From IMG/VR virus record IMGVR_UViG_3300018481_000039, positions 1 through 40,178 of that record: a stretch of DNA of 40,178 bases; one strand, given 5' to 3'. Numbering within the stretch: the first letter of the stretch is position 1; each line of letters begins with the position of its first letter. The notes below the pieces were generated by a model. The model saw nothing but the letters and a program-made list of their open reading frames with translations. It was not told where the DNA came from and ran no database searches. Of this stretch, positions 3,801 through 7,652 are shown piece after piece. The DNA is from a virus. A program made the position numbers and the translations under genes.

Positions 3801-3874
3801 GTCCTGTCCCATCATTAGGACCGGCGCCACCGCCAATATGCAATCCTTGCTAATTCTTTGCCTGATGCCCACCT

Positions 3875-3909
3875 AGGGCCGCTCATGATCGAGCGGCCCT
3901 ATTTTTTTT
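3875..3909 (+). terminator. strong intrinsic terminator at end of late operon
   Basis: A perfect 10-bp stem, AGGGCCGCTC (3875-3884) pairing with GAGCGGCCCT (3891-3900), has a 6-nt loop and is followed by A plus eight Ts (3902-3909). It ends plus-strand transcription of the tail/lysis operon just before the repeat array. It lacks a U-tract in the opposite direction. Confidence 0.92.
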
Positions 3910-3916
3910 GCCCATC

Positions 3917-4616
3917 GGACGCGCTGGTGGTGTTGGTACTCTCGTCTATGGCTCGCTCTTGCAGTATGGTGCGCTCATGAAGGATGGCTCGCTCTTGTAA
4001 CATGGTGTTCTCAAGTTGATTGGCTCGCTCATAGATTTTGGTGCACTCATGAAGGGTGGCTCGCTCATAGATTGTGGTTCTCTCGCAGACGATGGCTCGC
4101 TCTCTCGAAGTGGTTCTCTCACCTTTAATGGCTCGCTCCTGAATGTTGGTCCTCTCACTCACAATGGCTCGCTCTCTCCGCTGGGTTCTCTCGCGTAATG
4201 TGGCTCGCTCTCAAAGTCTGGTTCTCTCATATGAGATGGCTCGCTCAATGGCTTTGGTTCTCTCTTTTGAGATGGCTCGCTCAATGGCTTTGGTTCTCTC
4301 TTTCAAAATGGCTCGCTCCTGCTTGCTTGGTGCTCTCAAACTAAATGGCTCGCTCCGGCACTCTGGTCCACTCACTCATGATAGGCTCGCTCGCTTAATT
4401 TGGATCTTTCGTTTTTCATGGCTCGCTCTTCAATTTTGGTACTCTCAACTACATTGGCTCGCTCGACCAATTTGGTTCTCTCGACCATAATGGCTCGCTC
4501 TGGTTTGTTGGTACTCTCACCGGAATGGCTCGCTCGTTATTCATGATTCTCATGGCCCGCTCTGAACCAATGATACTATCACAGCTGTTGGCTCGATCTG
4601 ACACTCTTGTTTACTC
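3917..4616 (-). repeat. TIGR-like tandem interspaced guide array, distal block (about 19 units)
   Basis: On the plus strand the block alternates GGCTCGCTC and GGTTCTCTC (variants GGTACTCTC, GGTCCTCTC, GGTGCTCTC) every 18 bp, separated by 9-nt variable spacers. The true period is therefore 36 bp. Repeats of the first type start at 3950, 3986, 4022, 4058, 4094 and so on. A few 8- or 10-nt spacers shift the phase by one (for example at 4319-4328 and 4519-4526). Both edges are degenerate: GGACGCGCT at 3917, and GGCTCGATC then TGTTTACTC at 4590-4616. Spacers nearly always end in T. On the minus strand, which is the direction of the neighbouring Tas-like gene, the repeats read GAGCGAGCC and GAGAGAACC. 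The strand is inferred from that gene. One spacer pair is nearly duplicated in units 4238 and 4274. Confidence 0.9.
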
Positions 4617-4646
4617 ATTCTTGTTTACTCACTCTTTTGTTAAGTT

Positions 4647-4668
4647 GGGAGGCAGTTTCCCGCCTCCC
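4647..4668 (-). terminator. stem-loop downstream of PEP-CTERM gene
   Basis: GGGAGGC (4647-4653) pairs with GCCTCCC (4662-4668) around an 8-nt loop, 12 bp beyond the stop of the minus-strand PEP-CTERM gene. No U-tract follows on the minus strand, so it may be a weak or Rho-assisted terminator or a 3'-end stabiliser. Confidence 0.5.
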
Positions 4669-4679
4669 ATCATTATTTG

Positions 4680-5417
4680 TTAGGCGATCATCTTGCGGCG
4701 ACGGCGGGCAAGCATAATAAGTCCACCCATCGCAGCAATCAGACCGGGAAGGCCAGCACCCAGCAACGGACCGGGTACTGCAACAGGCACCAAGAAGAAG
4801 CTCTCAGGACCATCGTTCGCACCAGACCAACGTGCGAAGAAGATGACCTGATCGCCCAGCCTGATATCACCACGATTGATATCAAAGCCACTCAGCGTGT
4901 AGTCTGGATAGCCTGTGCCGTTGTTCGGCGCAAGTACCGGAACGCCGCCCGGTTCCGGCGAGAATGACGCCAGCACCGTGCGCTGCGTGAGGTTCAGAAA
5001 GTAGAACGACTCCAAGGTCTGCGCCTTGTTAGTATCGTTCACGTCAATGCCAACAGCAAAGCTGGTATTACCGGCAAGTGCTGCGAGGAAGGCACCATCG
5101 GCAAGTGAGTAGCCTGTGCCGAGTTGGTCTTGGCCGAGAGAGCCACCGACAGTCGCCGTCGAGAACATCAGATAGTCGTTGACGTTGCCGGTGGCGTCGA
5201 AGTTGTTGTAGCCGAACCCTGTCGGTTGTGCGGGTTGATTGGTGCCGCAGATCAGGCAGGGGTGGTTGCGAGGTTGGTTACCACCGGGTACGACCGATGA
5301 TAGCGTCAAGGTGCTGGTCGAGGGTGTGACCGCGAACAGGTCGATAGTTGCGGCATTGGCTGGAACTGACACCGCCGCCGACAAAAGCAGTGCCGCTGTT
5401 AGAAGAAGCTTCTTCAT
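4680..5417 (-). CDS. PEP-CTERM/VPLPA-type exported surface protein inside the array
   Basis: A 245-residue protein that starts with a classical signal peptide (MKKLLLTAALLLSAAVSVPA, cut near ANA). It has a beta-rich middle (FFARWSGANDGPESFFLVPV) and a C-terminal sorting signal: VPGPLLGAGLPGL, a hydrophobic helix, then LARRRRK. This tripartite Pro-TM-Arg tail is the PEP-CTERM/VPxxA-CTERM exosortase signal, common in alphaproteobacteria. The product would be exported, processed by a host exosortase-type enzyme and surface-displayed. I chose the ATG at 5415-5417 because it opens the signal peptide and has AAAGGA about 11 nt upstream. A longer frame to 5516 only reads through array repeats. It is flanked on both sides by repeat-array sequence and looks like host-derived cargo (a moron). 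Ligand or function is unknown. Confidence 0.85.
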   Translation of the reverse strand: MKKLLLTAALLLSAAVSVPANAATIDLFAVTPSTSTLTLSSVVPGGNQPRNHPCLICGTNQPAQPTGFGYNNFDATGNVNDYLMFSTATVGGSLGQDQLGTGYSLADGAFLAALAGNTSFAVGIDVNDTNKAQTLESFYFLNLTQRTVLASFSPEPGGVPVLAPNNGTGYPDYTLSGFDINRGDIRLGDQVIFFARWSGANDGPESFFLVPVAVPGPLLGAGLPGLIAAMGGLIMLARRRRKMIA

Positions 5418-5453
5418 TGTAGGTTTAGTCCTTTCAGAATGCTCCATGATATA

Positions 5454-5484
5454 CCGCCAGAGTTTGGAGCAAGAAGTCTGGCGG
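5454..5484. repeat. inverted repeat in PEP-CTERM leader
   Basis: CCGCCAGA (5454-5461) and TCTGGCGG (5477-5484) form a perfect 8-bp inverted repeat with a 15-nt spacer, between the array edge and the PEP-CTERM start. It could be an operator or a leader hairpin. Confidence 0.5.
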
Positions 5485-5489
5485 CAAAT

Positions 5490-6867
5490 GTTTCGCTCGT
5501 AGCATCTGGTGCTCACTTGATCTTTGGCTCGTTCTTATTTTATGGTGCGCTCTATTATAATGACTCGCTCTTCTTTTAGCGACCTATCATTTTGTATTGA
5601 CTCGCTCGCATTTCATGGTTCACTCGCAGCTCATGGCTCGCTCTCTCTATGTGGTACTCTCTTGCGTTTTGGCTCGCTCCACTCCAATGGTTCTCTCTGA
5701 GGTCTTGACTCGCTCTTCTTATGGTACTCGCATCTGGTATGGCTCGCTCACGTTGAATGGTACTCTCTGAGGTTATGACTCGCTCTCGGCTGATGGTAAT
5801 CTCAATCGTCGTTGGCTCACATCGTATGGTTCTCTCCTCATTGTTGGCTCGCTCCCACTAATGGTTCTCTCGCATTAATTGGCTCGCTCTTGTGGAATGG
5901 TCCTCTCTACATCATTGGCTCGCTCTCTCTATGTGGTGCTCTCAAGTCCTGGTGGCTCGCTCGCTTACATTGGTAACTCTCAAGGGAGATGGCTCGCTTT
6001 GGCTATTTGGTTCTCTCCGTTCATTTGGCTCGCTCGCATCGAATGGTACTCTCGCGATTAGTGGCTCGCTCATGTGACATGTTTCTATTCTGCCATCATG
6101 GCTCGCTCAAGGAAGATGGTTCACTCTGAGGAAATGGCTCACTCTGATCTTATGGTCCTCTCTGACACAATGGTTCGCTCACGTCAATTGGTACTCTCGT
6201 GTTTGATGGCTCGCTCATGTGGATTGGTACTCTCAGTCGTAATGGCTCGCTCACCCTGCGTGGTCCTCTCATACGACACGGCTCGCTCCTTGAACATGGT
6301 ACTCTCCTGGTTGTTGGCTCGCTCACACGCAATGGTTCGCTCTCTTCCGTTCGGCTCGCTCTGTCCTACTGGTTCTCTCGCTTGACATGGCTCGCTCATC
6401 AATCCTGGTTCTCTCCTCAGGTATGGCTCGCTCATGTGAAATGATCCTATCGGACATCATGGCTCGCTCTTGTCATTTGGTTCTCTCAAGGATGATGGCT
6501 CGCTCAGGTGCATTGGTCCTCTCTGACGTCATGACTCGCTCTGACCTTATGGTTCTCTCTGTCGCCAATGACTCGCTCATTATCAATGGACCTCTCATAG
6601 GTCATGGCTCGCTCTTCCCAAATGGTTCTCTCAATCCGCTTTGGCTCGCTCCTCTTAAATGGTTCTCTCCAGCACGCTGGCTCGCTCACAGAAAATGGTT
6701 CACTCTGACATTATGGCTCGTTCAGACTGAGTGGTTCTCTCGAAGGCAATGACTCGCTCTTACATCATGGTGCTCTCATGATAGGTGGCTCGCTCCAACG
6801 CTCTGGTTCTCTCAACAATGATGGCTCGCTCATGGACCGTGGTACTCTCGTAAACGATGGCTTATAT
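5490..6867 (-). repeat. TIGR-like tandem interspaced guide array, proximal block (about 38 units)
   Basis: The same organisation as the distal block: GGCTCGCTC-N9-GGTTCTCTC-N9 with a 36-bp period, strictly held over about 1.4 kb. First-type repeats start at 5526, 5562, 5599, 5635, 5671 and so on to 6787 and 6823. The last, degenerate repeat (GGCTTATAT, 6859-6867) touches the stop codon of the Tas-like gene. The repeats themselves vary little, mostly GACTCGCTC or GGCTCACTC, and GGTACTCTC or GGTCCTCTC. The 9-nt spacers are almost all different; TCTCTATGT occurs twice (5644, 5926). The edge near 5490-5590 is more degenerate than the Tas-proximal edge. The 36-bp unit with two 9-nt spacers equals the published tigRNA layout. 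Because 18 is a multiple of 3, several frames stay open but do not encode protein. Confidence 0.93.
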
Positions 6868-7652
6868 TATTTCAGATGCACATGACCGAGATGTGCAATC
6901 GGATACGGCAGCGGCGGCTCAGAACCTAAAATCTTTCTGTGCATCTCGCCATGAAGATGCGACAAGAAGAGCTTGACCGCATAGCGTTTTGCTCGCGCGT
7001 GGATATGAGCTGGGGGCAACTTGCCGATGATATAGCTTTTGTAAGCGTCAGTCGTTTGACCGATTTTGAATCGCTCCAACTTGGCCTTTGCCTGATCGGC
7101 AAATTCTCCAAGCTCATTGCGCTTCTCTTCTTGTGCCTTGCGCTCCTTCCAGATATGGCCATAGTAGCACTTCTCATTCCCAGAGAACTTTACAAAACTC
7201 TCACCGGCATGAAAGCAAATCACTTTCAGCGCCGCATTCCATGGCCGCTTCTTCTTTGCCTCCCAGCGCACAGTAGGATCAAGACCGGCAAAGCGCCAGA
7301 TGTGACCTACAGTTGGTGCCTTATGGATATCGATATGCGCGAGCAGACCGGCACTGATCACCGGTCCGATACCAAAGACGCCGCGCATCCATTCACCAAC
7401 CGGATGACCTTCAGTGTATTTATCTAGGGCGCGTTTGATCTGCGCCTCCAGCGTCGCACTCTGTTCCTCGTACCAAGACAATACCAAGTGAGGCTCTTCC
7501 TTGATCGAGCGGATTTGCCCGGCTGCGCGAATACGATTTTCTTGCATGGTGTAGTAGCTATCAACGAGGAACCTTGCCTCCGCATCACTCAGGGTTATGG
7601 CGGCCGTGGCAAGGTCACGCGTCAGACGTTGGATCGGATTCATATCAGACAT
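6867..7652 (-). CDS. tasA: Tas-like Nop/IS110-C-terminal domain protein (TasA type, no nuclease domain)
   Basis: A 261-residue protein. Residues about 40-85 form a charged coiled coil (ENRIRAAGQIRSIKEE... ATLEAQIKRALDKY). Residues 94-109 are GIGPVISAGLLAHIDI and 117-126 HIWRFAGLDP, followed by a basic segment, KKKRPWNAALKVICFHAG. Coiled coil, GIGP helix-hairpin and FAGLDP are shared by the C-terminal domain of IS110 transposases and the Nop domain of box C/D RNP proteins, which is the RNA-binding core of TIGR-associated (Tas) proteins. No DEDD/RuvC, HNH or serine-catalytic segment is visible, so it fits the nuclease-less TasA group rather than an IS110 transposase. An AGGAGG Shine-Dalgarno lies 7 nt before the ATG at 7652. 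Its stop touches the last repeat of the guide array, supporting one locus. Expected role: bind 36-nt tigRNAs and, guided by their two spacers, bind DNA. The call is structural inference from visible motifs. Confidence 0.85.
   Translation of the reverse strand: MSDMNPIQRLTRDLATAAITLSDAEARFLVDSYYTMQENRIRAAGQIRSIKEEPHLVLSWYEEQSATLEAQIKRALDKYTEGHPVGEWMRGVFGIGPVISAGLLAHIDIHKAPTVGHIWRFAGLDPTVRWEAKKKRPWNAALKVICFHAGESFVKFSGNEKCYYGHIWKERKAQEEKRNELGEFADQAKAKLERFKIGQTTDAYKSYIIGKLPPAHIHARAKRYAVKLFLSHLHGEMHRKILGSEPPLPYPIAHLGHVHLK

What the first reader, a model, noticed from the sequence alone, without database searches (positions are those of the whole stretch)
3917..7652. A TIGR-Tas-type RNA-guided locus: giant dual-spacer array next to a Nop/IS110-like protein
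About 57 units of GGCTCGCTC-N9-GGTTCTCTC-N9 (period 36 bp, two 9-nt spacers, two alternating repeats) directly abut a 261-residue protein with a coiled coil plus GIGPVISAGLLAHIDI...HIWRFAGLDP, the core shared by IS110 C-terminal and Nop domains. The published TIGR-Tas family combines Nop-domain Tas proteins with arrays processed into 36-nt tigRNAs carrying two spacers; period, spacer number and partner protein all fit. The family is known, but this locus is unusually long and split. It is the most likely unrecognised system of the window: standard annotation would call the protein an IS110 transposase and leave the array as spurious ORFs.
Basis: partly seen in the sequence, partly recalled or inferred. 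Interest (0 to 1): 0.97.

Follow-up and report, generated by a model that had tools for sequence, protein, structure and literature searches.

The report
Phage TIGR-TasA locus, ~57 dual guides
A phage genome carries a long array of about 57 tiny paired RNA guides beside a nuclease-free RNA-guided DNA-binding protein; it is a real, apparently functional member of the recently described TIGR-Tas family, not a new kind of system.

Summary
The 261-aa protein passes NCBI's TIGR-Tas model (209 bits, cut-off 100) and fails the IS110 model (25.8, cut-off 140). It is closest to solved TasR and TasH, and its confident all-helical AlphaFold model has no nuclease domain, so it is TasA. The array, degenerate end repeats included, has about 57 units. 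Corrections: it reads on the minus strand, like tasA; repeats are 10 nt (edge GAGCGAGCCA, loop GAGAGAACCA) with mostly 8-nt spacers; the 'split' is two subarrays flanking a phage gene for a secreted protein that TIGR-free relatives keep in the same place. The repeats nearly match the experimentally validated Salicola phage TasH array. Across about 1,800 neighbouring edge-repeat pairs, the two strongest covariations of 100 tested are the two base pairs known from tigRNA; in this window 100 of 100 such pairs are standard, three compensatory, which suggests selection on a processed RNA. A repeat-only scan of viral contigs found at least 120 stretches, some with longer arrays, so length and splitting are not exceptional. 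No spacer targets were identified. New member of a known kind; role probably RNA-guided DNA binding without cutting.

The parts
6867..7652 (-). tasA: 261-aa solo Nop-domain protein, no nuclease domain
   Evidence: NCBIfam TIGR_Tas_endo 209 bits (cut-off 100), IS110 25.8 (cut-off 140); phmmer to TasR 9mty E 3.5e-14, TasH 1.5e-8; AF2 pLDDT 91.8, no strands; Foldseek: all 11 matches at E<=0.001 are TasR or TasH
6858..6867 (-). 5'-truncated edge repeat (ATATAAGCCA) opening the array at the tasA stop codon
   Evidence: the published rule is that arrays typically begin with a truncated edge repeat (PMC12045711)
5489..6867 (-). TIGR subarray 2 (about 38 units): edge GAGCGAGCCA - 8 nt - loop GAGAGAACCA - 8 nt; degenerate at its distal end (about 5489-5620)
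   Evidence: compensatory edge-edge pairs, e.g. edge at 6759 (T8) with edge at 6723 (A3), and edge at 6180 (A7) with edge at 6144 (T4)
4680..5417 (-). gene between the subarrays: 245-aa secreted protein with PEP-CTERM-like tail; a phage gene not specific to TIGR
   Evidence: relatives in 188 viral-contig stretches, none of the best 80 near a tas gene or an array of 6 or more repeats; same place in TIGR-free syntenic phages L131 and L172
3934..4634 (-). TIGR subarray 1 (about 20 units), same repeats; degenerate tasA-proximal end (about 4540-4634)
3874..3901 (.). strong GC hairpin between the convergent late genes and the array end; the U-tract is on the + strand only

Best explanation
This is a dual-repeat TIGR-TasA system of a tailed phage. 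Inferred pathway: tasA and the array are transcribed leftward. TasA with a host RNase processes the transcript into about 57 different ~36-nt tigRNAs (half edge - spacer A - loop - spacer B - half edge). A TasA dimer holds each guide through its box C (CCA) and box D motifs, and the guide is closed by two edge base pairs and one loop base pair. The complex unwinds and sharply bends DNA whose two strands pair with spacers A and B. Having no nuclease, TasA should occupy or remodel the target rather than cut it. Shown here: the gene, the array, the transcribed-strand signature, the base-pair covariation, the predicted fold, and the absence of a nuclease domain. Known for relatives only: 36-nt processing in TasA, TasR and TasH, and guided two-strand DNA targeting in TasR and TasH. 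Inferred: expression and binding here. Most likely role (roughly 40%): a phage weapon silencing DNA of competing mobile elements or chosen host genes.
For: Curated model: NF052498 209 bits vs 100; all 50 aligned members hit that model. Structure: Foldseek's best 11 hits are TasR or TasH, with IS621/ISCro4 lower. Repeats nearly identical to the validated SpTasH array, AAGCGAGCCA-N8-AAGACAACCA-N8 (PMC12045711). Blind repeat-only scan: of 124 loci then held (120 from the scan), 90 besides the window have a tas homologue, and arrays lie on the tas strand for 4265 vs 159 repeats. Covariation: edge 7/next-edge 4 and edge 8/next-edge 3 rank first and second of 100; loop 3/8 ranks first of 45. Window: 97 Watson-Crick + 3 G-U of 100 pairs, shuffle p = 0.0003; across loci G-U outnumber A-C 149 to 24, so RNA is read from the tas strand. 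Units inherited as A-loop-B pairs: 18 shared vs 4 B-edge-A.
Against: No transcript or small-RNA data. No spacer targets in the phage record itself, in flanks of other array phages or in 0.93 Mb of phages carrying the neighbouring gene. Some end repeats are degenerate. The 3' end lacks a clear U-tract terminator on the minus strand.
Confidence: 0.95

Rival explanations
1. A decayed IS110-family transposase remnant next to an unrelated tandem repeat.
For: Pfam Transposase_20 just above cut-off, 22.6 vs 21.3 bits; PHROG name 'transposase'.
Against: IS110 model 25.8 vs cut-off 140 while the TIGR-Tas model scores 209; no DEDD domain; a coherent family of full-length relatives at about 50-66% identity found through their arrays; compensatory changes in the repeats.
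Confidence: 0.02
2. A genuine TIGR-TasA locus that is no longer active (relic array).
For: Degenerate end repeats at both inner ends; split arrangement; no targets found.
Against: Intact tasA frame with conserved core residues; 100 of 100 standard edge pairs with three compensatory ones in this window.
Confidence: 0.08
3. TasA here serves the phage's own DNA (for example guided bending for integration, replication or partition) rather than targeting foreign DNA.
For: TasA lacks a nuclease; the paper proposes DNA bending and notes ParB-linked TasA loci.
Against: No spacer pair matches the 40-kb record above scrambled controls in any geometry; no own-locus hits across 1847 units; no ParB or integrase among the larger window genes scanned. 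The record may be a fragment, so matches elsewhere in the genome are not excluded.
Confidence: 0.15

Closest known systems
TIGR-TasA (e.g. Flavonifractor plautii FpTasA), dual-repeat class; Faure et al. 2025, PMC12045711
   Same: Solo Nop protein plus alternating edge/loop repeats and paired spacers, truncated first edge
   Different: 8-nt rather than 9-nt spacers; about 57 units vs the usual 5-15; two subarrays flanking a resident phage gene
Salicola phage CGphi29 TIGR-TasH (SpTIGR), L002
   Same: Almost identical repeats (AAGCGAGCCA/AAGACAACCA), 8-nt spacers, period 36, array downstream of the gene, phage-borne
   Different: TasH carries an N-terminal HNH nuclease; TasA here does not; protein identity about 20-26%
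Thermoproteota TaTasR (PDB 9mty)
   Same: Nop core and C-terminal tail align, E 3.5e-14; same layout of two edge pairs and one loop pair
   Different: TasR has an active RuvC nuclease; its repeats begin with UG, here with GAG
IS110 family transposases (IS621, ISCro4)
   Same: Distant Nop-like domain
   Different: No DEDD domain here; array of small guides instead of a single bridge RNA

Membership tests
TIGR-Tas | Nop-domain Tas protein | tested here: met
   NF052498 209 bits vs 100; Foldseek TasR/TasH top 11
TIGR-Tas | Adjacent array of two alternating 8-12-nt repeats with short spacers | tested here: met
   10-nt repeats, mostly 8-nt spacers
[quoted passage not shown]
   ATATAAGCCA at 6867-6858
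TIGR-Tas | Array ends with a truncated edge repeat and a rho-independent terminator | tested here: inconclusive
   Strong hairpin at 3874-3901 but U-tract only on the + strand
TIGR-Tas | Box C/D pair in both repeats plus an extra pair in the edge, supported by covariation | tested here: met
   Top two of 100 position pairs between neighbouring edges; loop 3-8 pair
TIGR-Tas | Array processed into 36-nt tigRNAs | not testable with these tools
   Needs small-RNA sequencing
TIGR-Tas | Tandem-spacer targeting of both DNA strands | not testable with these tools
   No targets found; needs an in vitro binding assay
TasA subtype | No HNH or RuvC nuclease domain | tested here: met
   All-helical 261-aa model, pLDDT 91.8, no strands; Pfam finds no nuclease
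IS110 transposase | N-terminal DEDD/RuvC-like catalytic domain and family score | tested here: not met
   25.8 vs cut-off 140 bits; domain absent
CRISPR-Cas | 25-36-nt single repeats and Cas proteins | tested here: not met
   10-nt alternating repeats; no Cas protein among the larger window genes scanned

The most novel reading that the evidence does not exclude
TIGR-TasA arrays are fast-evolving phage guide banks that grow and recombine in whole units (A-loop-B pairs) inside the array and in several intergenic spaces, without an adaptation machinery, and TasA uses dozens of guides at once to silence competing mobile elements without cutting.
Probability: 0.3. Interest if true: 0.7.

Novelty: new member of a known kind. 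Interest (0 to 1): 0.4.

Why it matters
The family is known, but its array growth and natural targets are stated open questions (PMC12045711). This locus and the ~120 array stretches pulled out by its repeats give material for both. They show covariation that supports the tigRNA closing pairs in TasA phages with 8-nt spacers, inheritance of spacers as A-loop-B pairs, an internal one-unit difference between sister arrays, and local near-duplicates. A solo TasA with ~57 guides is a compact candidate for PAM-free DNA binding.

Tried and rejected
Self-targeting: 8 spacer geometries/phases against the 40-kb record, no excess over scrambled pairs. Cross-targeting: 1847 units against flanks of other array phages and 1793 units against 80 phages carrying the neighbouring gene; no consistent excess (isolated high counts, up to 9 vs about 3 and 8 vs about 2, in geometries or phases other than the expected one, after many tests). 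A scan of viral contigs for the target of a unit shared by three phages gave 18 scattered matches, not distinguishable from chance. Single-protein relative search in viral contigs found nothing; the repeat pattern search succeeded instead. TIGR-specific cargo idea: rejected, since none of 80 loci with the neighbouring gene has a tas gene or an array of 6 or more repeats. Plus-strand reading of the array: rejected by same-strand statistics and G-U/A-C asymmetry. Long-array and split-array uniqueness: rejected.

Full report
Observation. The window is a 40,178-base virus record from IMG/VR. Its larger genes are those of a tailed phage: terminase, portal, Pol III alpha, primase-polymerase, ThyX, endolysin. 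Between 3934 and 6867 lies a period-36 array in two parts. Read on the minus strand it is edge GAGCGAGCCA - 8 nt - loop GAGAGAACCA - 8 nt, with occasional 7- or 9-nt spacers. Counting the degenerate end repeats there are about 40 + 77 repeats, i.e. about 57 units; the strict parser counts 107 repeats. The array opens with a truncated edge repeat right at the stop codon of the 261-aa protein gene (7652-6867, minus strand).

Protein. NCBIfam's TIGR-Tas model scores 209 bits against a cut-off of 100, the IS110 model 25.8 against 140. phmmer against PDB finds TasR (9mty, E 3.5e-14) and TasH (E 1.5e-8) far above IS621 (0.013), and the C-terminal tail aligns with TasR. An AlphaFold2 model from 48 aligned sequences has mean pLDDT 91.8, pTM 0.87 and only helices. 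Its 11 PDB matches at E<=0.001 are all TasR or TasH, followed by IS110 recombinases. With no nuclease domain it is a TasA. In the tree its sister is L076 (66% identity), inside a well-supported clade of phage Tas proteins, away from SpTasH.

Array class. The published, experimentally validated array of Salicola phage CGphi29 (SpTasH) reads AAGCGAGCCA-N8-AAGACAACCA-N8 in its record, almost the same repeats with the same 8-nt spacers. Of the 124 loci then held besides the window and its own copy, 90 encode a Tas homologue (four of these had been fetched earlier by protein similarity), and repeats lie on the tas strand 4265 to 159. Longer arrays exist (L024, 129 strict repeats), and subarrays separated by gene-sized stretches occur in many loci.

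RNA-level selection. The TasR structure paper describes one box C/D pair in each repeat and one extra pair in the edge, formed between two successive edge repeats of one tigRNA (PMC12045711). Over 1,838 neighbouring edge pairs, with shuffling inside each locus, the two strongest compensated position pairs of 100 are edge position 7 with next-edge 4 and edge 8 with next-edge 3; in the loop the strongest is 3 with 8. In this window all 100 such edge pairs are standard: 97 Watson-Crick and 3 G-U, three of them double changes, shuffle p = 0.0003. Across loci G-U outnumbers A-C 149 to 24 on this strand, so the RNA is read from the tas strand. Limits: the shuffle does not correct for shared ancestry of neighbouring repeats; several neighbouring positions within one edge repeat also co-vary, as expected when degenerate repeats are included; but among the 100 pairs between successive edges only the two predicted ones stand out (z about 11, the next 2.5).

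Array evolution, from related loci. Units shared between distinct phages are kept as A-loop-B pairs (18) rather than B-edge-A pairs (4). The near-identical arrays L031 and L121 differ by one internal unit next to a near-copy spacer. Exact spacer repeats within an array are about a hundred times commoner than between arrays at short distances. This fits growth by internal unit duplication and recombination rather than polar acquisition; it is an inference from few cases, and the largest group involved is not the window's own clade.

Why the array is split. The gene between the subarrays (5417-4680) encodes a secreted protein with a PEP-CTERM-like tail. Relatives were found in 188 viral-contig stretches; none of the best 80 loci has a tas gene or an array of 6 or more repeats. 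In syntenic phages L131 and L172 the same gene stands between homologues of the same neighbours without any TIGR. So the gene is a phage resident and the TIGR module occupies both of its flanks here. A diverged TasA phage (L056) also has a homologue close to array segments, which may be coincidence.

Targets. No geometry or phase gave a convincing excess of spacer-pair matches in the phage record itself, in flanks of other array phages or in phages carrying the neighbouring gene. A scan for the target of one unit shared by three phages gave 18 scattered hits. Targets remain unknown, as in the literature.

Mechanism and verdict. Best explanation: transcription with tasA, TasA-dependent processing into ~36-nt tigRNAs, and dimeric TasA binding DNA by pairing spacer A with one strand and spacer B with the other, without cutting. 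Processing in TasA, TasR and TasH and DNA targeting in TasR and TasH are published (PMC12045711); for this locus they are inferred. The biological role (silencing competing elements or host genes) is a guess at about 40%. Filed as a new member of a known kind.

Noticed in passing
window 4680-5417 (-); L127-L206: A family of phage-encoded secreted PEP-CTERM-like proteins: 188 viral-contig stretches encode a relative, but a single-sequence scan found only one relative in the bacterial/archaeal genome collection (Comamonadaceae, 34%) and none in the phage or plasmid records searched. The function of a sorted surface protein in a phage is unexplained.
   Followed up: partly
L031 vs L121; L016, L034, L054, L066, L068, L093, L102: Related phages have mosaic TIGR arrays sharing whole units with point changes (e.g. 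GAAGGACA-TCCTTACA/TCCTTACG/TCTTTACG) and one internal single-unit difference.
   Followed up: partly
L056 1073-1762 and 1862-2602 (-); L058 24-698 (-): Other PEP-CTERM-like secreted proteins encoded near TIGR arrays in different phages.
   Followed up: partly
window 5454-5484 and 4646-4669: GC-rich hairpins between each subarray and the intervening gene; possible attenuators or processing signals.
   Followed up: no
L067 105-2306 (-): A 734-codon open frame containing a Tas domain; possibly a Tas fusion protein.
   Followed up: no
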